Source: Amycolatopsis dendrobii | GTDB taxonomy: Bacteria; Actinomycetota; Actinomycetes; Mycobacteriales; Pseudonocardiaceae | Length of the DNA: 64,000 nucleotides | NCBI RefSeq assembly: GCF_014145675.1 | Contig: NZ_JACGZW010000005.1 | Location: forward strand, 496,001-560,000 | Direction of reading: 5' to 3' | Shown: in pieces, positions 7,486 through 20,378 of the stretch | Numbering within the stretch: position 1 is the stretch's first letter | Layout: every line of letters starts with the position of its first letter | Program-made: the position numbers and the translations under genes | Notes under the pieces: model-generated | Told to the model about the DNA's origin: nothing | The model's input: only the letters and a program-made list of their open reading frames with translations | The model's database searches: none

Positions 7486-8682
7486 TCAGGCGATTTCGTC
7501 CGCTTCCCCGGGCGGCCCCCAAGCGAGCGCCAGCACGAGCGTCGCGCGCACGGCCGGGTCGTCCAGCGACGGCCCGAACAGGTCGTGCAGGCGGCCGAGC
7601 CGGTAGGACACCGTCTGCGGATGGATGTGCAGGTCCTCCGCGACCGCCTTGCGGTCCCCCAGATGCAGCAGCCACGACGTGAGCGTGGTGGAGAGCCGTT
7701 CCCGCGCGGATTCGTTCAGCTCGTCAAGCGGGGCAAGGGCTTGTCTTCGCAGCACGTCGAGCAGCCGGTCGTCGCGGTGCACGATGATCGCGTCGAGATG
7801 CTCGTCGGCGAACACCGGATCGTCGCTGAGCAGGTGGTCCCGCCGCAGCCGGGCGGTCACCTCGGCGATGCGCAGGCTGGCCGGGAGCCGGTCGAGCGGC
7901 ACCGTCGCGCCGACCACCGCGCCGCCGCCGCGCAGCGCACGGGCCAGCCACGCGCGCCTGCCGGGACCGCCCGGGTCCGGCACGATCGCCACGACCACGC
8001 CGGGCCTGCGCAGCCGCAGGCAGCTGTCTTCGAGGCGGAACACCAATTCCCGGCCCAGCTCGTTGTCGTCCTCCACCAGCACGACCGCGGCGTGCTTCGG
8101 CAACCGCCAGTCCGCGCGCGCCGCCGCGGCGCGCACCGCGGCCTTGTCCGCGCGGTCGGACAGCAGCAGCGCGGTCAGTTCGTCGCGCAGCCGTTCCCGC
8201 GCGCGCACCGCGTCCGACTGCTCCTGCAAGTAACCGCGCAGCGACGATTCCGAAAGCTGGTCCACCAGAGCGAACACGGTGGTGGCGAGCGAGGCGAACA
8301 GTTCGGCGGGCACCTCGAGATCGAGCGCCGCTTCCGAAACGTGCCGCCACGCCACGCGCGCGCCGACCCGGTAAGCCGACAGCAGGCTCGTGACGCGCCT
8401 GCCCTGCTGGTATTGCGCCCGCCCGATTTCCTCGAACACCGTCTGCTCGACGCCGGACCCCAGTTCCGGCAGCCGCTCGTCGGGTTCGGCCGCCATGTCG
8501 ATCAGCCGCCGGACGAATCCCGCGCTGGCGGCGACGAGGTCGGCGAGTTCTTCGGTCAGGAACTCCGCGTAGTCGGGATGTTCGTCCGCGAGCTGGTCGC
8601 GGACCTCGTTGAGCATGGCGGGCAGCCGGCGGGCCACCACCGTCTCCAGTTCGTCAAGCCGGGTCACCTGATCTGGTCCCAT
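7486..8682 (-). CDS. PucR-family transcriptional regulator
   Basis: A 398-residue regulator. The N-terminal half resembles the RsbR/PucR-associated helical domain. The middle is a degenerate GGDEF-like PucR domain, and the C terminus is the PucR-type helix-turn-helix (LLHLGDRKAVAEDLHIHPQTVSYRLGRL region, residues about 345-375). The ATG at 8682 (MGPDQVTRLDEL) is preferred over longer in-frame extensions, which would run through the hopanoid genes. It is transcribed divergently from hpnC across 150 bases containing a perfect inverted repeat, so it is a candidate regulator of the hopanoid operon. Confidence 0.85.
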   Translation of the reverse strand: MGPDQVTRLDELETVVARRLPAMLNEVRDQLADEHPDYAEFLTEELADLVAASAGFVRRLIDMAAEPDERLPELGSGVEQTVFEEIGRAQYQQGRRVTSLLSAYRVGARVAWRHVSEAALDLEVPAELFASLATTVFALVDQLSESSLRGYLQEQSDAVRARERLRDELTALLLSDRADKAAVRAAAARADWRLPKHAAVVLVEDDNELGRELVFRLEDSCLRLRRPGVVVAIVPDPGGPGRRAWLARALRGGGAVVGATVPLDRLPASLRIAEVTARLRRDHLLSDDPVFADEHLDAIIVHRDDRLLDVLRRQALAPLDELNESARERLSTTLTSWLLHLGDRKAVAEDLHIHPQTVSYRLGRLHDLFGPSLDDPAVRATLVLALAWGPPGEADEIA

Positions 8683-8728
8683 GTGTCCGGGAGTCCTTCC
8701 GTCGCAGGCAGCGGTCTCGGGTCGCCTC

Positions 8729-8743
8729 GGGACATCCTGTCCC
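8729..8743. promoter_or_regulatory. Candidate operator between PucR gene and hopanoid operon
   Basis: Perfect inverted repeat GGGACA-TCC-TGTCCC in the 150-base divergent spacer. A second, imperfect repeat (ACTTTGGC, then GCCAAGT) follows at about 8745-8767. Either could bind the PucR regulator; no consensus is known to me for this subfamily. Confidence 0.4.
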
Positions 8744-8832
8744 CACTTTGGCCTCTCGTGCCAAGTCGAAGCCACCGAAATTCGCTTTCCGGCGGCAGAA
8801 GCCGCCCGTCCGGGGGCGCGACACTGGCGGGG

Positions 8833-9699
8833 ATGAGATCCACAGCGGGTGTCCGGCACGCCCCGGACGCGTCGGGGCTGCGAGAGAAACGGCGCGCGGA
8901 AAACTTCCCGGTGGCCCTGCGGGTGCTGCCGGAACAGGTGCGCGCCGACCTCGTCGCGGTCTATTCCGTCGCGCGCACTGTGGACGATCTGGGCGACGAG
9001 GCCGAGGGCGACCGGATCGCGCAGCTCGAGGCGTTCTCGGCGGACCTGTCCGCGGCGTTCGGCAACGGGGAACCGGAAGATCCCGCTGTCCGTGGACTTC
9101 TCCCCGCGATCCGCGCCGGACGGCTGACCGAGGAACCGTTCCAGCGGCTCGTCCAGGCGAACATCCAGGACCAGCGGGTGCACCGTTATCCGGTCTTCGC
9201 GGACCTGCTGGCGTACTGCCGGCTTTCCGCGGACCCGGTCGGGCGGATCGTGCTCGACCTGCTCGGCGTCCGCGATCCGCGCGCGGCGGAGCTGTCCGAC
9301 CGGATCTGCACCGGGCTGCAGCTCGTGGAGCACTGGCAGGACGTCGGCGAGGACTACCGCAACGGGCGGGTGTACCTCCCGCAGGAGGATCTCGCCGAGT
9401 TCGGCGTCGCCGAGGAGGAATTGGGCGCCGCGCACGCGTCGCCGGAGATGAAAGCGCTGATGCGGTGGGAAACCGACCGCGCCGCCGCCCTCCTTGGCGG
9501 CGGCGCGGATCTGCTGGGGCGCCTGTCGGGCTGGGGGCGGTTCGCGGTGAGCGGCTTCCTCGCCGGCGGGCTCGCGACGGTCGACGCGCTGCGCGCGAGC
9601 GGCGGCGACGTGCTGTCCGCACCGGTCCGGCCGAGCCGGGCCGGGCTGCTGAGTTGGCTGGGGTGGCTGCAAGTCGGCACGAGGAGGCGGTCCGGATGA
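8833..9699 (+). CDS. hpnC: Hydroxysqualene synthase
   Basis: A 288-residue squalene/phytoene-synthase fold enzyme. In the three-step HpnCDE route, HpnC converts presqualene diphosphate to hydroxysqualene. The first aspartate-rich motif is SVARTVDDLGDE and the second is EHWQDVGEDYRNGRVYLP. The order HpnC then HpnD is the usual hopanoid gene order. The ATG at 8833 follows GGCGGGG. The stop overlaps the hpnD start by four bases. The first aspartate motif is in a form typical of HpnC rather than true squalene synthase. Confidence 0.92.
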   Translation: MRSTAGVRHAPDASGLREKRRAENFPVALRVLPEQVRADLVAVYSVARTVDDLGDEAEGDRIAQLEAFSADLSAAFGNGEPEDPAVRGLLPAIRAGRLTEEPFQRLVQANIQDQRVHRYPVFADLLAYCRLSADPVGRIVLDLLGVRDPRAAELSDRICTGLQLVEHWQDVGEDYRNGRVYLPQEDLAEFGVAEEELGAAHASPEMKALMRWETDRAAALLGGGADLLGRLSGWGRFAVSGFLAGGLATVDALRASGGDVLSAPVRPSRAGLLSWLGWLQVGTRRRSG

Positions 9700-10565
9700 C
9701 GGCACTGGGCACAGTGGACGAGGCCTACGCGCACTGCGCGGAAGTCACCAGGAAACAAGCTCGTAACTTCTACTACGGAATCCGGTTGCTGCCGCCGGAC
9801 AAACGCGCGGCGCTGTGCGCGGTGTACGCGCTGGCCCGGATCATCGACGACATCGGCGACGACACCGAAGCCTCCGCCGAGGCGAAGCTGCAGGGGCTCG
9901 CCGGGGTCCGGAAATCGCTCGGCGACCTGTCCGCGACCGCCGATCCGGTGTACGTCGCGGTCGCCGACGCGGCGCGCCGGTACCCGATTCCGCTCGGCGC
10001 GTTCGAGGAATTGCTCGACGGCGTCGAGATGGACGTGACCGGCCGCGAGTACGTGCGGTTCGAGGAACTGGTCGAGTACTGCCGGTGCGTGGCGGGTTCG
10101 GTCGGGCGGCTGTGCCTCGGCGTGTTCGGCAGCCGTCCGGAGCCGAACGCGCCGGTGTACGCCGACGAGCTGGGGATTGCCTTGCAGCAGACCAATATTC
10201 TGCGCGACATCCGCGAGGACCTGCTGGGCGGCCGGGTGTATCTGCCCAAAGAGGACCTCGACCGGTTCGGCGTCGAACTGTCCGTCGGCCCCGACGGGAA
10301 GCTCGCCGATCCCGAAGGCGGGCTCACCGCGCTGATCCACGACAGCGCCGCGCGGGCCCGCGACTGGTACTCCCGCGGTCTCCGCCTGGTGCCCTCTTTG
10401 GACGGTCGCAGCGCCGCGTGCTGCACCGCGATGTCGGGCATCTACCGCACCCTGCTGGACCGGATCGACGAACAGCCCGCGCGCGTGTTCGACCGGCGGC
10501 TTTCGTTGTCCGGCCGGGAAAAGGCGGTGGTCGCGTTCCGGGCGCTGACCGGGATCGGGCGATGA
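9696..10565 (+). CDS. hpnD: Presqualene diphosphate synthase
   Basis: A 289-residue enzyme joining two farnesyl diphosphates to presqualene diphosphate, the first step of the HpnCDE squalene route. It has both aspartate-rich motifs intact: YALARIIDDIGDDTE near residue 50 and QQTNILRDIREDLLGGRVY near residue 165. The start ATG overlaps the hpnC stop (ATGA), and its own stop overlaps hpnE in the same way, indicating tight translational coupling. Confidence 0.94.
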   Translation: MTALGTVDEAYAHCAEVTRKQARNFYYGIRLLPPDKRAALCAVYALARIIDDIGDDTEASAEAKLQGLAGVRKSLGDLSATADPVYVAVADAARRYPIPLGAFEELLDGVEMDVTGREYVRFEELVEYCRCVAGSVGRLCLGVFGSRPEPNAPVYADELGIALQQTNILRDIREDLLGGRVYLPKEDLDRFGVELSVGPDGKLADPEGGLTALIHDSAARARDWYSRGLRLVPSLDGRSAACCTAMSGIYRTLLDRIDEQPARVFDRRLSLSGREKAVVAFRALTGIGR

Positions 10566-11899
10566 CCGCCCCGGTCGCGGTGGTCGGCGGCGGGCTCGCG
10601 GGCATCGCCGCCGCGCTCGCCTGCGCCGACGCCGGACGTGCGGTGACGCTCTTCGAGGCGCGGCCGTATCTGGGCGGGCTCACGCATTCGTTCACTCGCG
10701 GCGAGCTGCGGGTCGACAATGGACAGCACGTGTTTCTCCGCTGCTGCACCGCTTATCGCGCGCTGCTCGACCGGCTCGGCGTCGCCGATCGGGTGACTTT
10801 GCAGCCGCGGCTGGAAATCCCGATCCGTCTGCCGGGCGCGACGGAGCCGACCTGGCTGCGCCGCGACGACCTCCCCGCGCCGCTGCACCTGGCCACCTCG
10901 TTGCTGCGTTACGACCCGCTGCGCCCGCTCGACCGGGCCCGGTTCGCACTCGCCGCGCTCGCGTTGCGCCGGGTGGATCCGAAGGCCGACCGCACGGATC
11001 GTCAGTCCTTCGGGGAATGGCTGCGGCGGCACGGACAGAGCGCGGCGGCGATCGAAGCGTTGTGGGATTTGGTCGGCGTGGCAACGCTGAACGCGACGGC
11101 CGACGACGCGTCGCTCAGTCTCGCCGCGACGGTGTTTCAGGAGGGCCTGCTCACCGATCCGGCCGCCGCCGACATCGGATGGTCGCTGGTGCCGTTGCGG
11201 GAACTGCACGGCGACCCGGCGCGCGAACGGCTGCTCGAGGCCGGCGCGGACGTCCGGGCCGGCACGAAGGTGCGCGCGATCAGCGAAGGCTGGCGGGTCG
11301 TCACCGATCGCGGCGAGGAGGAGTTCAGCCAGGTCGTCCTCGCCACTCCCCCGCCGGTGACCGAACAGCTCGCGCCGCCCGGGGCGATCGGGCTGCCGCC
11401 GGGCTGGTCCGGCGGCCTCGGCAGCTCGCCGATCGTGAACGTGCACGTGGTGCTCGACCGGAAGGTCCTCGACGAACCGTTCGTCGCCGGCGTGCGCACG
11501 CCGGTGCAGTGGGTGTTCGACCGGACGCGGCAGTCCGGGTTGGACTCCGGGCAGTACCTCGCGATGTCGCTGTCCGCCGCGGACGCGCAAATCGACCTGC
11601 CCACCGCGAAACTCCGCGAACAGCTGCTGCCCGAACTGCTGGCGCTGCTGCCCGAAGCACGCGGCGCGCGGGTGCTCGACTTTTTCGTCACCCGCGAGCG
11701 GCACGCGACGTTCCGGCCCGGCCCCGGCACCGCCTCGCTGCGCCCGCCCGCGCGCACCGCGCTGCCCGGGCTGTACCTGGCGGGTGCGTGGACCGCGACC
11801 GGATGGCCCGCGACGATGGAGGGCGCCGCGCGCAGCGGCGCGGCCGCGGCCGTCGCCCTCCTTCAGCACAACGGTAAGAGGGAGGGAGTCGGAGCATGA
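10562..11899 (+). CDS. hpnE: Hydroxysqualene dehydroxylase
   Basis: A 445-residue FAD-dependent amine-oxidase-fold protein that reduces hydroxysqualene to squalene. The dinucleotide-binding motif VVGGGLAGIAAALACADAG opens the protein. The HpnE/phytoene-desaturase-like C-terminal LYLAGAWTATGWPATMEGA closes it. ATGA overlaps join it to hpnD upstream and to the polyprenyl synthase downstream. Together with HpnC and HpnD it completes squalene synthesis without a canonical squalene synthase. Confidence 0.93.
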   Translation: MTAPVAVVGGGLAGIAAALACADAGRAVTLFEARPYLGGLTHSFTRGELRVDNGQHVFLRCCTAYRALLDRLGVADRVTLQPRLEIPIRLPGATEPTWLRRDDLPAPLHLATSLLRYDPLRPLDRARFALAALALRRVDPKADRTDRQSFGEWLRRHGQSAAAIEALWDLVGVATLNATADDASLSLAATVFQEGLLTDPAAADIGWSLVPLRELHGDPARERLLEAGADVRAGTKVRAISEGWRVVTDRGEEEFSQVVLATPPPVTEQLAPPGAIGLPPGWSGGLGSSPIVNVHVVLDRKVLDEPFVAGVRTPVQWVFDRTRQSGLDSGQYLAMSLSAADAQIDLPTAKLREQLLPELLALLPEARGARVLDFFVTRERHATFRPGPGTASLRPPARTALPGLYLAGAWTATGWPATMEGAARSGAAAAVALLQHNGKREGVGA

Positions 11900-12927
11900 C
11901 CGCCAATCTGTTTTCTGCCGAAAAGACGCGTTCAGCGGTGCCGCCGGTGCTCGGCAGCGCCCGGGACGCCGTGCAGCCGGCGTTGCGCGCCGCCGTCGAC
12001 CGGCTGGACGACAGCAGCCGCGCGATCAGCGCCTACCACCTCGGCTGGACCGACCCGAACGGCGTGCCGGTGCGGGGCAACGGCGGCAAGGCCGTGCGGT
12101 CGGCGCTCGCCGTGGTGTCCGCGCAGGCCGCGGGCGCGCCGGTCGAGGTCGGCGTTCCCGGTGCGGTCGCGGTGGAACTGGTGCACAACTTCTCGCTCGT
12201 CCACGACGATCTGATGGACGGCGACACCGAACGCAGGCACCGGCCGACGGTGTGGGCGCTGTGGGGGTCCGCGAGCGCGATCCTGACCGGGGACGCGATG
12301 CTCGCGCTCGCCCAGGAAGTGGTGCTGGACAGCGGTTCCCCGCACGCGGTCGCGGCCGGGCGGCTGATCGCCCAGACCACGCGGCGGCTCATCCACGGCC
12401 AGTTCCTGGACGTCGCGTTCGAGCAGCGCGACGACGTCGTGCTCGCCGAATGCGTGACGATGGCCGCCGGGAAAACCGGTGCGCTGCTGTCCGCCAGCGC
12501 CGCGATCGGCGCGGTGCTGGCCGGTGCGCCCGCCGAGGTGGTCGACGCGCTGGCGGTGTTCGGCGAGGAGATCGGCCTCGCGTTCCAGCTCGTCGACGAC
12601 GTGCTCGGCATCTGGGGCGATCCGGCGGTCACCGGGAAATCGGTGTACTCCGACCTGCGGGCGCGCAAGAAGTCGCTGCCGATCACCTACGCGATCACTC
12701 ACGGCGGCGCGGCGGGCCGGCGGCTCGCGGAATGGCTCGCCGGAGACGACGACACGGACCTCGCGCGGATCGCCGCGCTGGTGGACGACGCGGGCGGCCG
12801 CGAGTGGGCCACCACGGAAGCGGCGCGGCACGTCGCCACCGCGGAACAAGCGCTGGCCGCCATCCCGCCGGGCCCGCGCGACGACCTCGTTTCGATCGCC
12901 CGATTCATCGCCGGAAGGGAAGCGTGA
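11896..12927 (+). CDS. Polyprenyl (farnesyl-type) diphosphate synthase
   Basis: A 343-residue trans-prenyltransferase. The first aspartate-rich motif is DDLMD at 104-108. The second is DDVLGIWGD at 234-242. Conserved GGKAVRS and HDD contexts are present. In this operon it most likely makes the C15 diphosphate used by HpnD, though chain length cannot be assigned with certainty. The start overlaps the hpnE stop, and the stop shares one base with the shc start. Confidence 0.92.
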   Translation: MTANLFSAEKTRSAVPPVLGSARDAVQPALRAAVDRLDDSSRAISAYHLGWTDPNGVPVRGNGGKAVRSALAVVSAQAAGAPVEVGVPGAVAVELVHNFSLVHDDLMDGDTERRHRPTVWALWGSASAILTGDAMLALAQEVVLDSGSPHAVAAGRLIAQTTRRLIHGQFLDVAFEQRDDVVLAECVTMAAGKTGALLSASAAIGAVLAGAPAEVVDALAVFGEEIGLAFQLVDDVLGIWGDPAVTGKSVYSDLRARKKSLPITYAITHGGAAGRRLAEWLAGDDDTDLARIAALVDDAGGREWATTEAARHVATAEQALAAIPPGPRDDLVSIARFIAGREA

Positions 12928-14837
12928 TGACCCAGACCGTCCCCCGGACCTCCGCCTCCGCGCCCGCCGCCCGCACCGCTGCCGAGACTGTCGGCGCGGC
13001 CGTCGAGTTCCTGCGCCGCGAGCAGGACCGCGCCGGATGGTGGAAGGGCGAACTCGCCACCAACGTCACGATGGACGCCGAAGACCTGCTGCTGCGGCAC
13101 TTCCTCGGCATCCTCACCCCGCAGATCGCCGAGGAGTCCGCGCGCTGGATCCGCTCGCAGCAGCGCTCCGACGGCACCTGGGCGAACTTCCCGGACGGCC
13201 CGGCGGACCTGTCCACGACGGTCGAGGCGTGGGTCGCGCTCCGGCTGGCCGGCGATCCGGCGGACGCCCCGTGGCTGGCCACGGCCGCCGACTGGATCCG
13301 CGAGCACGGCGGGATCGAGGCGACGCGCGTGTTCACCCGGATCTGGCTCGCGATGGTCGGCCAGTGGTCCTGGGACGACCTGCCGAGCCTGCCGCCCGAG
13401 CTGATCTTCCTGCCGTCGTGGTTCCCGCTCAACGTCTACGACTTCGCCTGCTGGGCGCGGCAGACCATCGTGCCGCTCACCATCGTCGGCACCCTGCGCC
13501 CGGTGCGGAAGCTCCCGTTCGATGTCTCCGAACTGCGCACCGGCAAGCGTCCGCCGAAGACGCGCGCGCCGTGGACGTGGGACGGCGTGTTCCAGAACCT
13601 CGACACCGCGCTGCACGCGTACGCGAAACTGCCGCTCAACCCGGTGCGGAAGCTCGCTGTCAAGCAGGCCGCGGAATGGATCCTCGCGCGGCAGGAGGCC
13701 GACGGTTCATGGGGCGGGATCCAGCCGCCGTGGGTGTACTCGATCCTCGCGCTGCACTTGCTCGGCTACTCGCTCGACCATCCCGCGCTCAAGGCCGGGA
13801 TCGCCGGGCTCGACGGGTTCACCATCCGGGAGAAGACCGACCAGGGCTGGGTGCGCCGGCTCGAAGCGTGCCAGTCGCCGGTGTGGGACACCGCGCTGGC
13901 GATGACCGCGCTGCTCGACGCTGGTGTCTCCCCCGGCGACGAAACCCTGGTCCGCGCCGCGGATTGGATGCTCGGCGAGGAAATCCGGGTGCCCGGCGAC
14001 TGGGCGGTGCGGCGGCCTTCGCTGCAACCGGGCGGGTTCGCGTTCGAGTTCGCCAACGACGGCTACCCGGACACCGACGACACCGCCGAGGTGGTGCTCG
14101 CGCTGCGGCGGATGGGCAAACCGGATCACCTGCGGATCCGGGAGGCGGTCGACCGGAGCGTCGCGTGGCTGGAGGGAATGCAGTCCAGCGACGGCGGATG
14201 GGGCGCGTTCGACGCGGACAACACGCAGGTGCTGACCACTCGCCTGCCGTTCTGCGATTTCGGCGCGGTGATCGATCCGCCGTCGGCGGACGTGACCGCG
14301 CACGTGGTCGAAATGCTGGCCGCCGAAGGGAAATCCGGCACTCGCGAATGCCGTCGCGGGATTCGGTGGCTGTGGGACAACCAGGAGGAGGACGGCTCGT
14401 GGTTCGGCCGCTGGGGCGCGAACTACGTGTACGGGACGGGCGCGGTGGTGCCCGCGCTGGTCGCGGCCGGGGTCCCCGGGAGCGACCCGCGGATCCGGCG
14501 TGCGGTGAAGTGGCTGGCCGAGCACCAGAACGACGACGGCGGGTGGGGCGAGGATCTGCGGTCCTACGACGACCGGGCGTGGGCCGGACGCGGCGATTCG
14601 ACGCCGTCGCAGACCGCTTGGGCGTTGCTGGCACTGCTCGCCGCCGGGGAACGGGAGTCCACTGCGGTCACCCGGGGCGTCGAGTGGCTGGTCGAACGGC
14701 AGCGGCCGGACGGCGGCTGGGACGAGGACAAGCACACCGGAACCGGTTTCCCGGGCGACTTTTACCTGTCGTACCACCTGTATCGCGTGGTGTTCCCGCT
14801 GTCCGCGCTCGGCCGGTATGCACGGGGCGGGTCATGA
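12927..14837 (+). CDS. shc: Squalene-hopene cyclase
   Basis: A 636-residue membrane-associated cyclase that converts squalene to hopene/hopanol in one cascade. The catalytic acid motif DTDDT is at residues 382-386. Several QW repeats are visible (for example QQRSDGTWANF, QSSDGGWGAF, QNDDGGWGED, QRPDGGWDED), which stabilise the alpha-alpha barrels. Length is normal for the family. The ATG shares one base with the preceding stop (TGATGA), and the gene overlaps the HpnG-IspH gene by four bases. Confidence 0.96.
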   Translation: MTQTVPRTSASAPAARTAAETVGAAVEFLRREQDRAGWWKGELATNVTMDAEDLLLRHFLGILTPQIAEESARWIRSQQRSDGTWANFPDGPADLSTTVEAWVALRLAGDPADAPWLATAADWIREHGGIEATRVFTRIWLAMVGQWSWDDLPSLPPELIFLPSWFPLNVYDFACWARQTIVPLTIVGTLRPVRKLPFDVSELRTGKRPPKTRAPWTWDGVFQNLDTALHAYAKLPLNPVRKLAVKQAAEWILARQEADGSWGGIQPPWVYSILALHLLGYSLDHPALKAGIAGLDGFTIREKTDQGWVRRLEACQSPVWDTALAMTALLDAGVSPGDETLVRAADWMLGEEIRVPGDWAVRRPSLQPGGFAFEFANDGYPDTDDTAEVVLALRRMGKPDHLRIREAVDRSVAWLEGMQSSDGGWGAFDADNTQVLTTRLPFCDFGAVIDPPSADVTAHVVEMLAAEGKSGTRECRRGIRWLWDNQEEDGSWFGRWGANYVYGTGAVVPALVAAGVPGSDPRIRRAVKWLAEHQNDDGGWGEDLRSYDDRAWAGRGDSTPSQTAWALLALLAAGERESTAVTRGVEWLVERQRPDGGWDEDKHTGTGFPGDFYLSYHLYRVVFPLSALGRYARGGS

Positions 14838-16303
14838 CCCCGATCGTCTGCACCCCGTTGCGGATCGAGCAGGCCGCGCTGCGCGGCCCCGGTCCGCGGA
14901 CGGTCCACACCGGACTCGGGCCTCGCCGGGCCGCCGCCGCTGCGGCCCGGCTCCCGTCCGGACCGCGGATCGTCGCGGGGGTCGGCGGCGGGCTCACCCC
15001 TGCCGTACGGCCGGGAGACGTGGTGGTCGCCACTGAGGTGCGCGGTCCTTCCGGCGTGGTGCCGGTGCCGTCCGCTCCGTTGCTGGCGGGTGCGTTGCGC
15101 GGGCTTGGCCTCACTGTCCATCTCGGGCCCGTGGCCGGCAGTTCGCACGTGGTGCGGGAACGGGAACGGGCTTCGCTGGCCGCCAGTGGTGCGCTGGCGG
15201 TCGACATGGAGTCTGCCTGGCTGGCGGCCGACGGTGAACCGTTCGCTGTGGTTCGAGCCATTGTGGACACTGCCGGAGCGCCGCTGTTCCATCCTTCGAC
15301 GGTCGCTAATGGCCTCACCGGGTTGCGGAGTCTGCGCCGGGCCGCTCCCGCGATCACTGCGTGGGCTGAAGCCATAGGACCGCGAAAGGTGCTGCTGGCC
15401 AGTCCGCGATCGTTCTGCGCTGGAGTGGAGCGGGCGATCGAGATCGTCGAACGCGCGCTCGAGAAGCACGGCGCGCCGGTGTACGTGCGTCGGCAGATCG
15501 TGCACAACACCCACGTCGTGCGCCAGTTGCAGGGGCGCGGCGCGGTGTTCGTGGACGAGGTGGAGGAAGTTCCGGAAGGCGCGACGCTCGTCTTCGCAGC
15601 CCACGGCGTCTCCCCGGCGGTTCGGCGAGCCGCAGCGGACCGCGGACTGTCCGTAGTGGACGCGACGTGTCCGTTGGTTACCAAGGTGCACAACGAAGTC
15701 CGCCGTTACACCGGTCGCGGCGAGACAGTGTTCCTCATTGGGCATGCCGAGCACGAGGAAGTGGAAGGCACCGTCGGAGAAGCGCCCGACAATGTGGTGG
15801 TCGTCGGCGATGTCGCGGCCGCTCGGACGGTCACCGTGCGCGACCCCTCGCGGACCGCCTACACCATGCAGACCACGCTGGCACTCGACGAGGCTGAAGA
15901 GATCGCTTCCGTGCTGCGCGAACGATTCCCCGGGCTTTCCGCGCCGCGCAAGGACGACATCTGTTACGCCACCACCAATCGGCAGCAGGCTTTGCGCGCG
16001 ATCGCCCGCGAAGTGGATCTGGTGCTGGTCGTGGGTTCCGGGAATTCGTCCAACTCGCGGCGGCTGGTGGAGGTCTCCGAACGCGAGGGAACCCCGGCGG
16101 TTCTGGTGGACGGCTGCGGCGACGTCGACCTGCGCCGGCTCGCCGGGATCGGCCGGATCGGGCTCACCGCGGGAGCTTCGGCTCCGCCGCGCCTGGTGTC
16201 CGAAACAGTCGGGGCCCTGCGCGGATTGGGGCCAGTCAGCGTCGCGGAAAACACGCTGACGGAGGAAGAAATGACGTTCACCCTACCTCGGGAGGTGCTC
16301 TGA
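14834..16303 (+). CDS. HpnG-like nucleosidase fused to IspH (HMBPP reductase)
   Basis: A 489-residue fusion. Residues 1-180 look like the hopanoid phosphorylase HpnG (MTP/SAH nucleosidase fold), with the purine-nucleosidase signature AVDMESAWLA at about 122-131. HpnG acts on adenosylhopane to release adenine. Residues 184-489 are a complete 4-hydroxy-3-methylbut-2-enyl diphosphate reductase. The three [4Fe-4S] cysteines are present (C195 in SFCAGVERAI, C279 in DATCPLVTK, C377 in DICYATTNRQ), as are HNTHVV, AAHGVSP and GSGNSSNS. So one polypeptide holds an early MEP-pathway enzyme and a late hopanoid enzyme. No stop or start signal is visible between them. It overlaps shc by four bases; hpnH starts 3 bases later. 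Confidence 0.93.
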   Translation: MTPIVCTPLRIEQAALRGPGPRTVHTGLGPRRAAAAAARLPSGPRIVAGVGGGLTPAVRPGDVVVATEVRGPSGVVPVPSAPLLAGALRGLGLTVHLGPVAGSSHVVRERERASLAASGALAVDMESAWLAADGEPFAVVRAIVDTAGAPLFHPSTVANGLTGLRSLRRAAPAITAWAEAIGPRKVLLASPRSFCAGVERAIEIVERALEKHGAPVYVRRQIVHNTHVVRQLQGRGAVFVDEVEEVPEGATLVFAAHGVSPAVRRAAADRGLSVVDATCPLVTKVHNEVRRYTGRGETVFLIGHAEHEEVEGTVGEAPDNVVVVGDVAAARTVTVRDPSRTAYTMQTTLALDEAEEIASVLRERFPGLSAPRKDDICYATTNRQQALRAIAREVDLVLVVGSGNSSNSRRLVEVSEREGTPAVLVDGCGDVDLRRLAGIGRIGLTAGASAPPRLVSETVGALRGLGPVSVAENTLTEEEMTFTLPREVL

Positions 16304-16306
16304 GCG

Positions 16307-17308
16307 ATGGCCATGCCGTTGCGCCAGTCTCTTCGGCTGGGCGGTTATCTGATGAAGCAGAAGCTGCTGCGCAAGGAGAAGTTCCCGCTCCTGGTCGAGC
16401 TGGAACCGCTCTTCGCGTGCAATCTCAAATGCGGCGGATGCGGCAAGATCGCGCAGCCGCACACCCTGCTGAAACAGCGGATGCCGGTGGAGCAGGCGGT
16501 CGGGGCGATCGAGGAGAGCGGCGCGCCGATGGTGTCGATCGCGGGCGGCGAACCGCTGATGCACCCGCAGATCGACGAGATCACCCGGCAGCTGCTCGCC
16601 CGCAACAAGATCATTTTTCTCTGCACCAACGCGCTGCTGCTGCCCAAGCACATCCACAAGTTCAAGCCGCACCGCAATTTCGCGTGGATGGTGCACATCG
16701 ACGGCCTCGAAGAACGGCACGACGCGTCGGTGCGCAAGGAGGGCGGTTTCCAGGCGGCGGTCGACGCGATCAAGCTCGCCAAGGAAAAGGGCTTCCGCGT
16801 CATGACGAACACGACGTTCTTCACCGGGGACACCCCGCAGGACGTCATCGACGTGCTCGACTACCTCAACGACCTCGGCGTCGACAACATGCAGATCTCG
16901 CCGGGATACGCGTACGAGAAGGCGCCGGACCAGGACCACTGGCTCGGCGTGCAGCAGACCCGCGAACTGTTCGCCAAGGCCTTCGGCGGCGGCAACCGGA
17001 AACGCTGGCGGCTCAACCATTCGCCGGTGTTCCTCGATTTCCTCGAGGGCAAACGCGACCTGGAATGCACGCCGTGGGGCATCCCGTCGTATTCGCTGCT
17101 CGGCTGGCAGCGCCCGTGCTACCTGCTGGACGACGGCTACGCGAAGACCTACCGGGAGCTCATCGAAACCACCGAATGGGAGAACTTCGGCCGCGGCAAG
17201 GACCCGCGCTGCTCGAACTGCATGGCGCACTGCGGCTACGAACCCACCGCGGTGATCGCCACTCTCGGCTCGCTCAAGGAGTCCGTCCGGGCCGCCGTCG
17301 GCCACTGA
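16307..17308 (+). CDS. hpnH: Adenosyl-hopene transferase (radical SAM)
   Basis: A 333-residue radical SAM enzyme that attaches the 5'-deoxyadenosyl group to the hopene side chain, the first step to C35 hopanoids. The [4Fe-4S] motif is CNLKCGGC (C38, C42, C45). The C-terminal part carries the family's DUF3463-type region with cysteines around CSNCMAHCGYEP. A strong GGGAGGTG lies upstream, inside the end of the preceding gene. It is the last gene of the operon and is followed by a 15-bp hairpin. Confidence 0.95.
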   Translation: MAMPLRQSLRLGGYLMKQKLLRKEKFPLLVELEPLFACNLKCGGCGKIAQPHTLLKQRMPVEQAVGAIEESGAPMVSIAGGEPLMHPQIDEITRQLLARNKIIFLCTNALLLPKHIHKFKPHRNFAWMVHIDGLEERHDASVRKEGGFQAAVDAIKLAKEKGFRVMTNTTFFTGDTPQDVIDVLDYLNDLGVDNMQISPGYAYEKAPDQDHWLGVQQTRELFAKAFGGGNRKRWRLNHSPVFLDFLEGKRDLECTPWGIPSYSLLGWQRPCYLLDDGYAKTYRELIETTEWENFGRGKDPRCSNCMAHCGYEPTAVIATLGSLKESVRAAVGH

Positions 17309-17416: not shown

Positions 17417-17491
17417 ATGCGTGCGCAGCGATTTCTTCGCCCCCGGGGAGTGCCCGGGGGCTGCGCGTGCGCGCCGGGTTCCGCCCGCTGA
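17417..17491 (+). CDS. Possible 24-residue leader peptide ahead of pheS
   Basis: ATG-to-TGA ORF starting MRAQRFLRPRGVPGG and ending ACAPGSAR. It has one Phe, encoded by TTT, which is a rare codon in this genome and is flanked by other uncommon codons (CGA, CTT). A 9-bp GC hairpin (17439-17447 with 17453-17461) lies inside the ORF. The position before an aminoacyl-tRNA synthetase suggests attenuation, but a single Phe codon is weak support. It could equally be chance. Confidence 0.3.
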   Translation: MRAQRFLRPRGVPGGCACAPGSAR

Positions 17492-17519: not shown

Positions 17520-17538
17520 GTGAAGTCCAGCACTTCAC
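17520..17538. promoter_or_regulatory. Inverted repeat just ahead of the pheS ribosome-binding site
   Basis: GTGAAGT-CCAGC-ACTTCAC, perfect 7-base arms, ending 10 bases before the GAGGAA Shine-Dalgarno of pheS. It could be an operator or a small leader hairpin affecting translation. Confidence 0.35.
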
Positions 17539-17557: not shown

Positions 17558-18583
17558 GTGGACCCTCTCGAACCCGCCTCGGCGCTGCGCCGGATCGCCG
17601 CGCTGACCGAGGCCGCACTCGCCGATCTCGCCCAGGCCAGCACGCCCGCCGCTGTCGCTGACGTGCGCCGTTCCGTGCTCGGCAAGTCCAGCCCGCTCGC
17701 CGCCGTCCGCCGCGACCTCGGCCGCTGCGACCCGGCCTGCCGAAAACAGCTCGGCCTCGCGCTTTCCAAGGCACACCAGCGCATTACCGCCGCGCTGGAG
17801 GAAAAACGCGCCGCGGAAACCGCACTGGACCGCCCGCTCGACCCGACCGTGCCCGGCCTTCCGCCGCCGACCGCCGGACTGCACCCGGTCACCCAGCTGA
17901 GATACGACCTCGACGACGCCTTCCGCGCGCTCAACTTCGCGGTCGTCGAGAGCCCGGAAATCAGCTCCGCGGAAATGGAATTCGACCGGCTGAACTTCCC
18001 GGCCGACCATCCGGCGCGGACGAGCATGGACACCTACTGGCTGGCCGACGGCCGCTGCCTGCGTCCGCACCTGACCGGCACGAGCGTCCGGTACCTGAGC
18101 ACGCACGAACCACCGATCCGGATCGCCTACCCGGGACGCGTTTACCGCAACGAAAGCACCGACGCCCGGCACGAACGCGCGTTCTTCCAGTACGAGGTGC
18201 TGGTGGTCGACGAGAACATCCCGCTCGCCAGCGCCCGGTTCCTCGTCGACACCATCCTCGGCACGGTGTTCGGCGAACCGGTGCGAACGCGGATGCGCGC
18301 CGGGTACTTCCCCTTCGTAGAACCAGGTTTCGAGATCGACATGGTCTGCCAGGTGTGCTCGGGCCGCGGCTGCCGCATCTGCGGACGGACCGGCTGGCTC
18401 GAGGTGATGCCCGGCGGCAGCCCGCATCCGCACGTGCTGAGCGCCGCCGGACTCGACCCGGCGCGATGGTCCGGCTGCTACCTGAACGCCGGCCTGGACC
18501 GGCTGGCGATGATGCGCTACGGCATCGACGACGTCCGGCTGATGCACAGCGCCGACCTGCGCTTCCTCTCCCAATTCTCCTGA
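17558..18583 (+). CDS. pheS: Atypical phenylalanyl-tRNA synthetase alpha-like subunit
   Basis: A 341-residue class II synthetase catalytic subunit: N-terminal coiled-coil-like arm (1-90), then a catalytic core with motif 2 region GRVYRNESTDARHERAFFQYE (Q211 and E213 kept) and the Cys-rich MVCQVCSGRGCRICGRTGWLEV. Motif 3 differs: the usual GFAFGMGxER reads GCYLNAGLDR, placing Tyr308 where a small Ala lines the phenyl pocket (Ala294 in E. coli). The RTHTSP segment reads RPHLTG. It is therefore a divergent PheS, likely a paralogue rather than the housekeeping enzyme (inference). GTG start after GAGGAA. Followed 13 bases later by the beta subunit gene. Confidence 0.8.
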   Translation: MDPLEPASALRRIAALTEAALADLAQASTPAAVADVRRSVLGKSSPLAAVRRDLGRCDPACRKQLGLALSKAHQRITAALEEKRAAETALDRPLDPTVPGLPPPTAGLHPVTQLRYDLDDAFRALNFAVVESPEISSAEMEFDRLNFPADHPARTSMDTYWLADGRCLRPHLTGTSVRYLSTHEPPIRIAYPGRVYRNESTDARHERAFFQYEVLVVDENIPLASARFLVDTILGTVFGEPVRTRMRAGYFPFVEPGFEIDMVCQVCSGRGCRICGRTGWLEVMPGGSPHPHVLSAAGLDPARWSGCYLNAGLDRLAMMRYGIDDVRLMHSADLRFLSQFS

Positions 18584-18596
18584 AAGGCCCGCTGCC

Positions 18597-20378
18597 GTGA
18601 AGATTTCCCGGGACTGGCTCGCCGACTACGTGCCCCTGCCCCGCTGTCCGCCGGACCAGCTGGCGCACGAGCTGACCTTGAAGACCGTCGAAGTCGAGGG
18701 GTACGACCTCGTCGACGACGACGTTGTCTTCGAGGTCGACAACAAATCGCTCACCAATCGCCCCGATCTGTGGGGACACTACGGAATCGCGCGCGAGCTG
18801 TCCGTCCTCTATGGACTCCCGCTGGCTCCGCTTCCCCGTATCGCGCGGCCGCCGGGCACTACCGGCCTCGCACTGGCCGACCCCGCTCGGCATCAGCGGA
18901 TGCTGGCTCTGCAGTGCACAGTGGACAGTTCCGTGCCGGCACCGGCCTTCATCCGCGACCGGCTCCGGCGAATCGGCCAACCGGTCCAGGACTTGTGCGC
19001 CGACCTGAGCGCTTACGTGATGTTCGCCGTCGGACAACCAAGCGACGTCCGTGCCTCGGGCGACTCGCTCGTGCTGGAGATACCGACGCTGATCCCCAGC
19101 CACGCCCGGCGCAGCGCCCGGACCGAAGCTTCAGTGCGCCAAGAAAAAGGCTTGGACACTCAACGCGCCGACGAAGCCGCCGGCCTGTTCCTCCGCCTCC
19201 TGACCGAGGCGGATCCCTCAGCCGCGGCGCTCGGAGCGGAAGACATCGTCCTCGCCGCCACCCAACGCGCCGAGATCGAGATCACCCTCGGGGAAATCGA
19301 ACGCCGGATCGGCCTCCCGCTGCCCCCGGACGAAATCCTGCGCATCCTCCGCGCCCTCGGCTGCACCGCCGAGGTCGTCGGAGAGCTGCTGCGGGTCGTC
19401 GCTCCGTCGTGGCGTTCCACCGGTGATCTCTCGCTGCCCGTGGACATCGTCGAGGAGCTGGCCCGCATCCACGGCTTCGACGCACTGCCCGCGCCGCGGC
19501 CCGTCGTGCGACTGGCCCCGCCCCCTCGGCTCCCCTTGAGCCGCCAGGTCCGGGAGGTGCTGGCGGCGCGCGGCGGGGCAACGGAAGTGCTGACCTACCC
19601 GTGGTCCGCCGACCATCTGCTCGCCGCGTGCGGCCTCGACCCCGCTCTCGCCATCGCCCGTCCGCCGGCCCCGGATCGCGCCCGGCTGCGCCCGTCGCTG
19701 ATCCCGAACCTGCTCGAAGCCGCGGCCGCCAACCTGCGCTGCCACGACGAGTTCAGCCTCTTCGAGGTCGGCACCGTCTTCGCCGCGGGCGAGCGGACGT
19801 CCGCCGGGATCCTGCTCGCCGGACCGGACGGGGCCGGCCTGTTCCGCCGGGCCAAGGGGCTGGTCGACGTGCTCCGCCGGTACTGCCGTCTCACCGCACT
19901 GGACCTGTCCGGTGTCCCCGGCCTGGCCTGGACCGACCCGTCGGCCCGGCTCGCGATCCGCCCGGCCGGGGCACTGGCGCTGGTCCGGCCGCCGGTGCTC
20001 CGGGCGGCGGGCATCGAGCGGGGCGCGATCGCCTGCGTCGAACTGGACCTCGACGCGCTGCGGACGCACCCGTCCCGCCAGAACCGCTACACCCCCGTCG
20101 GCGACCTGCCCGAATCGGACTTCGACCTGTCCGTCCTCGCGGCCGACACCGTGCCGTGGTCGCTGGTCGCCGACACCGCGACCCAGGCCCACGCCTTGGT
20201 GCAGCGGGTGGCGTACGTCGGCGAGTACCGCGGTTCGAGAATTCCGCCAGGCCACCGTTCGCTCACCTTGCGAGTCACCCTCCGCCCGAGGTCCGCGACG
20301 CTGACCGCGGGCGAAATCGCCACAGCCCGCTCCGAAGTGCTGACTGCGCTAGAGCGGGCGGGGGCGCGGTTGCGGTGA
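18597..20378 (+). CDS. pheT: Short phenylalanyl-tRNA synthetase beta-like subunit
   Basis: A 593-residue PheT, about 200 residues shorter than usual bacterial PheT (near 800). The N-terminal SWL-like stretch (ISRDWLADYVPLP) passes straight into FEVDNKSLTNRPDLWGHYGIARE, so the EMAP/OB-type tRNA-binding insert is absent. A shortened B3/B4 region, the B5 domain (about 220-300), the catalytic-like core and a C-terminal FDX-ACB anticodon-binding domain (about 500-593) remain. The NKSLTNRPDLWGHYG wording is unlike the common TPNRPDCLS form. GTG start. It ends 3 bases from the convergent PPOX gene. Confidence 0.8.
   Translation: MKISRDWLADYVPLPRCPPDQLAHELTLKTVEVEGYDLVDDDVVFEVDNKSLTNRPDLWGHYGIARELSVLYGLPLAPLPRIARPPGTTGLALADPARHQRMLALQCTVDSSVPAPAFIRDRLRRIGQPVQDLCADLSAYVMFAVGQPSDVRASGDSLVLEIPTLIPSHARRSARTEASVRQEKGLDTQRADEAAGLFLRLLTEADPSAAALGAEDIVLAATQRAEIEITLGEIERRIGLPLPPDEILRILRALGCTAEVVGELLRVVAPSWRSTGDLSLPVDIVEELARIHGFDALPAPRPVVRLAPPPRLPLSRQVREVLAARGGATEVLTYPWSADHLLAACGLDPALAIARPPAPDRARLRPSLIPNLLEAAAANLRCHDEFSLFEVGTVFAAGERTSAGILLAGPDGAGLFRRAKGLVDVLRRYCRLTALDLSGVPGLAWTDPSARLAIRPAGALALVRPPVLRAAGIERGAIACVELDLDALRTHPSRQNRYTPVGDLPESDFDLSVLAADTVPWSLVADTATQAHALVQRVAYVGEYRGSRIPPGHRSLTLRVTLRPRSATLTAGEIATARSEVLTALERAGARLR

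What the first reader, a model, noticed from the sequence alone, without database searches (positions are those of the whole stretch)
17558..20378. PheRS-like pair with altered amino-acid pocket and no tRNA-binding insert
PheS has Tyr308 where family members have a small Ala controlling para-substituted Phe entry, plus other motif changes (GCYLNAGLDR, RPHLTG). PheT, at 593 residues, lacks the EMAP-like insert but keeps B5 and FDX-ACB. It could be a resistance paralogue to a PheRS inhibitor, a synthetase for a different amino acid, or a supplier of aminoacyl-tRNA to biosynthesis.
Basis: partly seen in the sequence, partly recalled or inferred. Interest (0 to 1): 0.75.

Follow-up and report, generated by a model that had tools for sequence, protein, structure and literature searches.

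The report
Auxiliary phenylalanyl-tRNA synthetase, proofreading domain lost
An Amycolatopsis-type soil bacterium carries, beside its normal enzyme for loading phenylalanine onto tRNA, a second one of a different lineage that many anaerobic gut bacteria appear to use as their only one; here it has lost its proofreading part and is probably a spare that keeps working when the normal enzyme is poisoned.

Summary
PheS (17558-18583) has Tyr308 where 38 of 38 canonical rows have Ala, and the 593-aa PheT lacks the EMAP insert. A normal pheST lies elsewhere in the genome. The odd pocket is not unique: all 80 relatives kept from a capped genome scan have Tyr, and the 39 clade rows put in a tree form one clade (100/100). 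In 13 of 14 mostly Clostridial or Synergistota genomes tested this type is the only strong PheS. Nine T-box leaders found before it read UUC, a Phe codon, by eye. So the type is an alternative PheRS, not a synthetase for another amino acid. In four of four actinomycete genomes tested it is a second copy. In Amycolatopsis it follows hpnH behind a conserved leader predicted to hide its start codon, is under purifying selection, and is decayed in 3 of 8 loci. Best reading: a horizontally acquired auxiliary PheRS, probably insensitive to an inhibitor or toxic Phe analogue, whose Tyr-closed pocket makes editing dispensable. Resistance is inferred, not shown.

The parts
17558..18583 (+). pheS2: alpha subunit of the auxiliary PheRS (341 aa, GTG start)
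   Evidence: PF01409 223 bits; TIGR00468 200 bits, below its 237-bit equivalog cut-off
18062..18079 (+). RPHLTG, replaces canonical RTHTSP (PheS 169-174)
18407..18430 (+). MPGGSPHP, replaces the canonical GCGMVxP-type loop (PheS 284-291)
18473..18502 (+). GCYLNAGLDR, replaces canonical GFAFGMGxER; Tyr308 codon at 18479-18481
18597..20378 (+). pheT2: beta subunit (593 aa, GTG start) without EMAP domain and without the B3/4 core
18711..18722 (+). junction where the EMAP-like insert of other PheT is missing (PheT about 39-42)
   Evidence: alignment
19032..19070 (+). junction of the B3/4 deletion (GQPS/DVRAS, PheT about 146-158); editing His absent
   Evidence: alignment
19275..19478 (+). B5 domain
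   Evidence: PF03484
19518..20051 (+). catalytic-like module (CLM) of PheT
   Evidence: PF17759
20106..20375 (+). FDX-ACB anticodon-binding domain
   Evidence: PF03147
17417..17491 (+). short leader ORF M-R-A-Q-R-F-L-R-P-R-G-V-P-G-G-C-A-C-A-P-G-S-A-R-stop, conserved in six Amycolatopsis-genus loci
17438..17461 (+). strong hairpin inside the leader ORF, just after its TTT-CTT codons
17493..17563 (+). predicted hairpin that pairs part of the ribosome-binding site and the GTG start of pheS2 (includes inner hairpin 17520-17538)
16307..17308 (+). hpnH-like radical SAM gene, last gene of the hopanoid operon; left neighbour of the leader in the eight loci examined

Best explanation
pheS2-pheT2 encode an auxiliary phenylalanyl-tRNA synthetase. 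It belongs to an alternative bacterial PheRS type (here 'FYxN type', after the GFYxN motif in its pocket) that is the only strong PheS found in most of the Clostridial and Synergistota genomes tested, and it came into actinomycetes by horizontal transfer. It still activates Phe with the PheS core and charges tRNA-Phe. A Tyr fills the site where canonical enzymes have the Ala that helps separate Phe from Tyr, and the facing loop has changed to smaller or stiffer residues. With the para end of the pocket closed, Tyr is probably rejected at activation, so the editing parts (EMAP insert, B3/4 core) could be lost. The gene pair is kept as a spare under a leader that hides its start codon, and is made when the normal PheRS is blocked by an inhibitor or a toxic Phe analogue. 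Shown by sequence: second copy, clade, T-box logic of the clade, domain losses, purifying selection, conserved leader, decay in some relatives. Inferred: Phe activity of this copy, tight pocket, inducibility, resistance.
For: Canonical pheST elsewhere in the genome. Tyr308 in 80 of 80 clade rows against Ala in 38 of 38 canonical rows. Clade 100/100 with pocket columns masked; ten actinomycete copies form one group 100/99. Only strong PF01409 hit in 13 of 14 mostly Clostridial or Synergistota genomes, second copy in 4 of 4 actinomycete genomes. Only the own genome reached E 1e-95 among 397 genomes of the order and 394 of the class: patchy spread. T-box leaders in 7 of 17 short loci plus L069 and L070, 9 of 9 specifiers read by eye as UUC; tRNA-Phe (GAA) between T-box and pheS in L144. 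Conserved residues H171, R197, Q211, E213, F251, F253, R315 kept. dN/dS 0.18-0.22 (pheS2) and 0.19-0.28 (pheT2), 6 pairs each. Leader ORF 96-99% identical to four other species where pheS2 is 88-92%; the leader folds 3.3 sd below shuffles and pairs the start codon. Six-gene cassette beside pheST2 in Catenulispora and Pilimelia, same order. Conserved Ala and Tyr rejection, editing-free PheRS in mitochondria, dead editing domain in Mycoplasma: PMC7373986 (passages).
Against: No inhibitor, assay or expression data. The Amycolatopsis locus lies between a hopanoid operon and a PNPOx/MFS pair, not in a biosynthetic cluster. Context in L056 and L058 is not clearly biosynthetic (only 3 L058 proteins scanned). 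Clostridial members keep B3/4 although they have the same Tyr, so the pocket alone does not make editing needless there. The Amycolatopsis branch is long (0.78) and has extra pocket changes (Cys307, Leu309) that could shift specificity. No T-box passed E 0.001 in 10 of 17 loci, and 5 of the 9 found are below Rfam's gathering score. Among 50 loci scanned with ARAGORN none had a tRNA-Phe (the one case, L144, was not in that set). The leader has one Phe codon only, and its base pairs show almost no covariation. hpnH beside it is as conserved as the leader region.
Confidence: 0.5

Rival explanations
1. Stress or backup PheRS: a second enzyme that serves translation in a growth phase or stress (low Phe, oxidative stress, metal lack), with no drug involved; missing editing is tolerated, or supplied in trans by canonical PheT.
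For: Purifying selection, regulated-looking leader. Precedent: an editing-poor second ThrRS induced under zinc lack that borrows editing from the first (PMC4787780, passages).
Against: Present full-length with its leader in 5 of 80 genus genomes and decayed in 3 more, so no general need. About 35% identity to the own PheS makes mixed tetramers unlikely.
Confidence: 0.2
2. Biosynthetic synthetase: it charges tRNA-Phe for a tRNA-dependent ligase or cyclodipeptide-type pathway.
For: Beside a six-gene cassette in Catenulispora and Pilimelia and beside an NRPS gene in a Kutzneria MAG.
Against: No tRNA-dependent ligase family was named by Pfam among the neighbours scanned. Neighbours differ between taxa while pheST2 stays.
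Confidence: 0.1
3. Synthetase for a different amino acid or Phe analogue, arisen inside the Amycolatopsis branch from the FYxN PheRS.
For: Long branch (0.78); Cys307 and Leu309 not seen in the 79 clade rows outside the genus; both editing parts lost.
Against: Clade motifs RPHLTG, FPF, Y308, N310 unchanged; no tRNA gene in the window; one tRNA-Phe found in the own genome by similarity (not exhaustive).
Confidence: 0.1
4. Relic: a gene pair on its way out, no longer a synthetase.
For: Three of eight syntenic loci are decayed; EMAP and B3/4 core lost.
Against: Stop-free full-length frames in five genomes, dN/dS 0.18-0.28 in four of them, leader ORF more conserved than the genes, catalytic residues intact.
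Confidence: 0.1

Closest known systems
Auxiliary indolmycin-resistant TrpRS of Streptomyces (S. griseus SGR_3809; one of two TrpRS of S. coelicolor)
   Same: Actinomycete with a second, divergent synthetase for the same amino acid; a candidate attenuator precedes trpS2 of S. avermitilis (PMC6804068, PMC4787780 reference list and PMC1262725, passages).
   Different: There the inhibitor is known; here the enzyme is PheRS and no inhibitor is known. The trpS2 attenuator is described as classical; here the leader is predicted to fold over the start codon.
Canonical bacterial PheRS (TIGR00468 / TIGR00472)
   Same: Alpha/beta gene pair, class II core, B5, CLM and FDX-ACB domains.
   Different: Pocket motifs exchanged, EMAP and B3/4 core missing, scores below both equivalog cut-offs.
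FYxN-type PheRS of Lachnospiraceae and other Clostridia, Synergistota, Acidobacteria
   Same: Same clade, same pocket motifs (80 of 80 rows with Tyr308).
   Different: There mostly the only strong PheS, with full B3/4 in the rows aligned and a T-box in some; here an extra copy with a shortened PheT.
Mycoplasma and mitochondrial PheRS without working editing
   Same: PheRS that lives without editing (PMC7373986, passages).
   Different: Mycoplasma has a degenerate, inactive domain and the mitochondrial enzyme is the alpha subunit alone; here most of the B3/4 core is cut out of a separate beta subunit.
Second ThrRS (T2) of the prokaryote studied in PMC4787780
   Same: Duplicated synthetase with impaired editing, induced under stress (passages).
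   Different: Different amino acid, dimeric family; no evidence of mixed oligomers here.

Membership tests
Bacterial PheRS, alpha subunit (PheS) | tRNA-synt_2d core with motif 2 and 3 arginines | tested here: met
   PF01409 E 4e-66; R197 and R315 invariant
Bacterial PheRS, alpha subunit (PheS) | NCBIfam equivalog cut-off TIGR00468 (237 bits) | tested here: not met
   200 bits
Bacterial PheRS, alpha subunit (PheS) | conserved Ala (GFAFG) in the side-chain pocket | tested here: not met
   Tyr308
Bacterial PheRS, beta subunit (PheT) | B5, CLM and FDX-ACB domains | tested here: met
Bacterial PheRS, beta subunit (PheT) | EMAP-like tRNA-binding domain | tested here: not met
   also missing in L055, L058, L064, L099
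Bacterial PheRS, beta subunit (PheT) | B3/4 editing domain with its His | tested here: not met
   below cut-off, core deleted
FYxN-type PheRS clade | groups with Clostridial PheS when pocket columns are masked | tested here: met
   100/100
FYxN-type PheRS clade | specificity for Phe and tRNA-Phe | tested here: inconclusive
   T-box UUC and one adjoining tRNA-Phe for Clostridial members; nothing direct for the Amycolatopsis copy
Auxiliary antibiotic-resistant aminoacyl-tRNA synthetase | second divergent copy beside a housekeeping one | tested here: met
Auxiliary antibiotic-resistant aminoacyl-tRNA synthetase | insensitive to a defined inhibitor | not testable with these tools
   needs an assay
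Auxiliary antibiotic-resistant aminoacyl-tRNA synthetase | induced by the inhibitor | not testable with these tools
   leader structure only
SrmL (PheS-related mystery ligase, NF051887) | score over 300 bits | tested here: not met
   120 bits; L052 and L053 score 501 and 503

The most novel reading that the evidence does not exclude
Actinomycetes make a still unknown natural product that kills by blocking the canonical Phe pocket of PheRS. FYxN-type PheRS pairs are the matching self- or cross-resistance genes, marked by the six-gene cassette in Catenulispora and Pilimelia. In Amycolatopsis the resistance enzyme has been pared down to an editing-free bacterial heteromeric PheRS, replacing editing by a Tyr-gated pocket and kept silent by a start-codon-hiding leader that senses failure of Phe-tRNA supply.
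Probability: 0.25. Interest if true: 0.75.

Novelty: new variant of a known kind. Interest (0 to 1): 0.5.

Why it matters
PheRS is a drug target, yet the listings of my paper searches showed no resistance paralogue of it. If this copy is inhibitor-proof, its relatives point to gene clusters that may make PheRS-targeting antibiotics. The clade also shows that the 'conserved' pocket Ala is Tyr in many Clostridia, which bears on PheRS inhibitor spectrum and on pheS counter-selection. The Amycolatopsis PheT is a natural test of whether pocket tightness can replace editing.

Tried and rejected
Rejected: 'unique pocket at this locus' (the same motifs in 80 of 80 fetched relatives). 'No other pheST'. 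'SrmL family'. Anti-phage system (no PADLOC hit for the two proteins). T-box or other Rfam element before the actinomycete copies: for the window only two hits far below gathering, for L155-L158, L056 and L057 none at E 0.01 apart from a cobalamin riboswitch in L156; L058 was not scanned. Leader as a dispersed repeat: 42 of 80 genus genomes had some match at E 0.01, but besides the 8 strong loci all had E above 1e-4; a pattern for its first codons found 1 exact site and 2 with one mismatch in the own genome. Plasmid carriage: 49 plasmid records matched, all under 60% identity. A search for the first cassette protein in 296 genomes of the phylum gave 0; it had no positive control, so it shows rarity at most.

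Led nowhere: structure prediction of both subunits (jobs failed, then tool switched off), so the pocket could not be modelled. A leader alignment with mixed strands was replaced.

Completeness of the genomes was not told, and many are MAGs. The 20 genomes were chosen by me out of the 80 loci. Specifier codons were read by eye, and Rfam's own consensus carries uuc at that place. The tree tool flagged L163, L051, L164 (Azospirillum) and L040 as long rows whose place is unsure. G1159 is taken to be A. circi from contig length and position. Roles of the His, Gln, Glu, Arg and Phe residues, the His of the B3/4 site, the mapping to Ala294 of E. coli, and the role of the EMAP (B2) domain in editing are recalled; the Ala-to-Tyr discrimination point is in PMC7373986. 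Papers: only search listings and the passages were seen.
Full report
What is there. The window lies in an Amycolatopsis-type genome (nearest named relative Amycolatopsis circi, 88% in PheS; G000, 9.69 Mb). PheS is GTG 17558-18583 and PheT is GTG 18597-20378. The own genome has two PF01409 hits over the cut-off, 323 bits at C6 and 224 bits at the window, and two PheT hits. In addition the B3/4 domain of PheT is cut down: Pfam sees it only below its cut-off over 41 of 174 positions, and the alignment shows one gap of 59 columns in the four Amycolatopsis PheT and in none of the other 19. EMAP is absent in 8 of 23 PheT: the four Amycolatopsis, L055, L058, L064, L099. So EMAP loss came before B3/4 loss in the actinomycete line, or happened more than once.

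The pocket belongs to a clade. A scan of genome contigs with the window PheS kept 80 loci, the cap, out of more. All 80 have Tyr at 308 and R-P-H-L-T-G; 79 of 80 have Asn310; 38 of 38 canonical rows have Ala308 and T, T, S at 170, 172, 173. R197, Q211, E213, F251, F253 and R315 are the same in all clade and canonical rows counted; H171 is the same but for six canonical rows. With the pocket columns masked, a tree of 61 rows puts the 39 clade rows together at 100/100, next to a PheS on plasmid pAB510a of Azospirillum sp. B510 that has the canonical pocket (the tool flags that row's long branch). The ten actinomycete rows group at 100/99; the four Amycolatopsis rows sit on a 0.78-long branch.

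The clade is a working PheRS type. I picked 20 genomes from the 80 loci. Fourteen are Bacillota or Synergistota, counting one unplaced bacterium (1XD8-76) that sits among Lachnospiraceae in the tree: 13 of these have the clade PheS as their only strong PF01409 hit (weak hits near 20 bits aside), and that unplaced one, G470, has both types. The Acidobacteria and the gamma-proteobacterial MAG have only the clade type. All four actinomycetes (Catenulispora rubra, Pilimelia terevasa, A. circi, a Kutzneria MAG) have a canonical PheS as well, and the Kutzneria MAG a third hit of 117 bits. T-box leaders lie before the clade pheS in 7 of 17 short loci (L066 and L141 over Rfam's gathering score of 93, the other five at 63.5-92.5) and in L069 and L070 (both over it). 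Read by eye, the nine specifiers are UUC. In L144 a tRNA with anticodon loop CUGAAAA (tRNA-Phe, GAA) lies between the T-box and pheS. None of 50 other loci scanned with ARAGORN had a tRNA-Phe. A synthetase that is the sole candidate for Phe and is switched by uncharged tRNA-Phe is a PheRS. This is strong for the clade and only inherited by inference for the Amycolatopsis copy.

In Amycolatopsis. Among 36 genus genomes in one search, 3 have an intact clade PheS and one a fragment. Only the own genome reached E 1e-95 among 397 genomes of the order and 394 of the class; in 396 of the phylum the next best hit after the own one was E 1e-80, 41% identity. Searching the leader in 80 genus genomes gave 8 strong loci (E at most 2.4e-41), all beside hpnH. 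G000, G010, G026, G1159 (taken to be A. circi) and G1170 carry full-length, stop-free pheST2. G1178 has a damaged pheS and no pheT match, G012 only the first 96 codons of pheS directly before PNPOx, with an IS110-type transposase between PNPOx and MFS, and G034 no pheS2 or pheT2 match. So the pair most simply entered once at this place and has decayed since, in three different states. Where kept it is under purifying selection: dN/dS 0.184-0.219 for pheS2 and 0.189-0.281 for pheT2 in 6 pairs each, against 0.023-0.063 for hpnH.

The leader. Between hpnH and pheS2 lies a 24-codon ORF, MR[A/T]QRFLRPR[G/A]VPGGCACAPGSAR, in six loci aligned (G1178, with one extra base, and G034 left out); 5 of 7 variable codons change without changing the residue. 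Against the window the ORF is 96.0-98.7% identical in four species, pheS2 88.3-92.2%, pheT2 84.8-90.0%; hpnH, in three of them, is 96.6-97.7%. The region folds at -84.2 kcal/mol against -69.8 (sd 4.4) for shuffles, z -3.28, 1 of 200 shuffles as good. The consensus has a strong hairpin just after the TTT-CTT codons and a second long hairpin that pairs the GTG start. Covariation is almost nil because the block hardly varies (covariation term +0.36, 1 of 50 pairs with both sides changed), so the structure rests on energy and conservation. A leader peptide that couples ribosome position to opening of the start site would fit an inducible synthetase. Which state opens it I cannot say.

Neighbours elsewhere. 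In Catenulispora rubra (L055, divergent) and Pilimelia terevasa (L059, same direction), of different families, pheST2 lies beside the same six genes in the same order: a protein without Pfam match, PhyH, an LCM-type methyltransferase, a GT9-like protein (below cut-off), DUF4254 and PhyH (43-67% identity). In the Kutzneria MAG it lies beside an NRPS gene, an ATP-grasp-like protein (below cut-off) and a class IV aminotransferase on one side and ribonucleotide reductase on the other. L056 and L058 show no clear cluster (three L058 proteins scanned). In the window the flanks are a hopanoid operon and PNPOx/MFS genes; these right-hand genes also occur in G012, where pheST2 is decayed. This mixed picture fits a mobile resistance gene near biosynthetic genes in some hosts and alone in others. 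It does not prove it.

Mechanism. A 2020 review states that PheRS has a conserved Ala that helps separate Phe from Tyr, that mitochondrial PheRS of human and yeast lacks this residue and relies on higher specificity, and that Mycoplasma PheRS has a dead editing domain (PMC7373986, passages). Putting Tyr there, with the V to P and C/A to G changes in the other loop, should close the para end of the pocket while leaving room for Phe; that would reject Tyr early and explain why editing parts could go. This is my inference; no model could be made. Closest functional precedent: Streptomyces strains with a second, indolmycin-resistant TrpRS (PMC6804068, passages; a cited title in PMC4787780), and a candidate attenuator before trpS2 of S. 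avermitilis (PMC1262725, passages). One Phe analogue from nature named as a PheRS inhibitor is ochratoxin A (PMC7916415, passages; its natural origin is recalled).

Verdict. Ordinary in kind (duplicated synthetases are common: 25,913 cases in 26,837 genomes, PMC4787780), unusual in detail: a second PheRS type with a swapped pocket, an editing-free beta subunit, a conserved leader, and a possible road to PheRS-directed natural products. Small PheT as such is not new: spirochaetes carry an archaeal-type PheT of 514-573 residues (PMC3191353, passages).

Noticed in passing
L144 1105-1177: tRNA-Phe (GAA) gene between a T-box leader and the clade pheS in an Erysipelotrichaceae MAG.
   Followed up: partly
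L164 9611-13093: Plasmid pAB510a of Azospirillum sp. B510 carries a PheST pair placed next to the FYxN clade but with the canonical FAFG pocket.
   Followed up: partly
L052 7568-8761; L053 7107-8219: SrmL-type PheS-related ligases of unknown function (501 and 503 bits, cut-off 300) in an Amycolatopsis-genus genome (L052) and a genome of another family of the order (L053).
   Followed up: no
L051 5506-8699: Another second PheS-like protein in genus genome G008, over the TIGR00468 cut-off, with its own pocket variant (GLAFGWGLTR) and a PheT-like frame beside it.
   Followed up: no
window 7585-17308: Hopanoid-type operon: two squalene/phytoene-synthase-type genes, an amine-oxidoreductase, squalene-hopene cyclase, a phosphorylase-type plus LytB reading frame, and hpnH-like radical SAM.
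   Followed up: partly
L055 4670-9127 and L059 3716-8366: Six-gene cassette with two PhyH oxygenases, in the same order in two actinomycete families beside pheST2; its first protein gave 0 hits in 296 phylum genomes, without a positive control.
   Followed up: partly
L050 8961-10211: IS110-type transposase between the PNPOx and MFS genes in G012, near the pheS2 remnant.
   Followed up: no
L134 and L154 (genome G470): Bacterium 1XD8-76 has both a canonical PheS and a clade PheS; possibly a natural side-by-side case in a Clostridial host.
   Followed up: no
L156 2742-2949: Cobalamin riboswitch near the Kutzneria MAG pheST2 locus, perhaps for the ribonucleotide reductase beside it.
   Followed up: no
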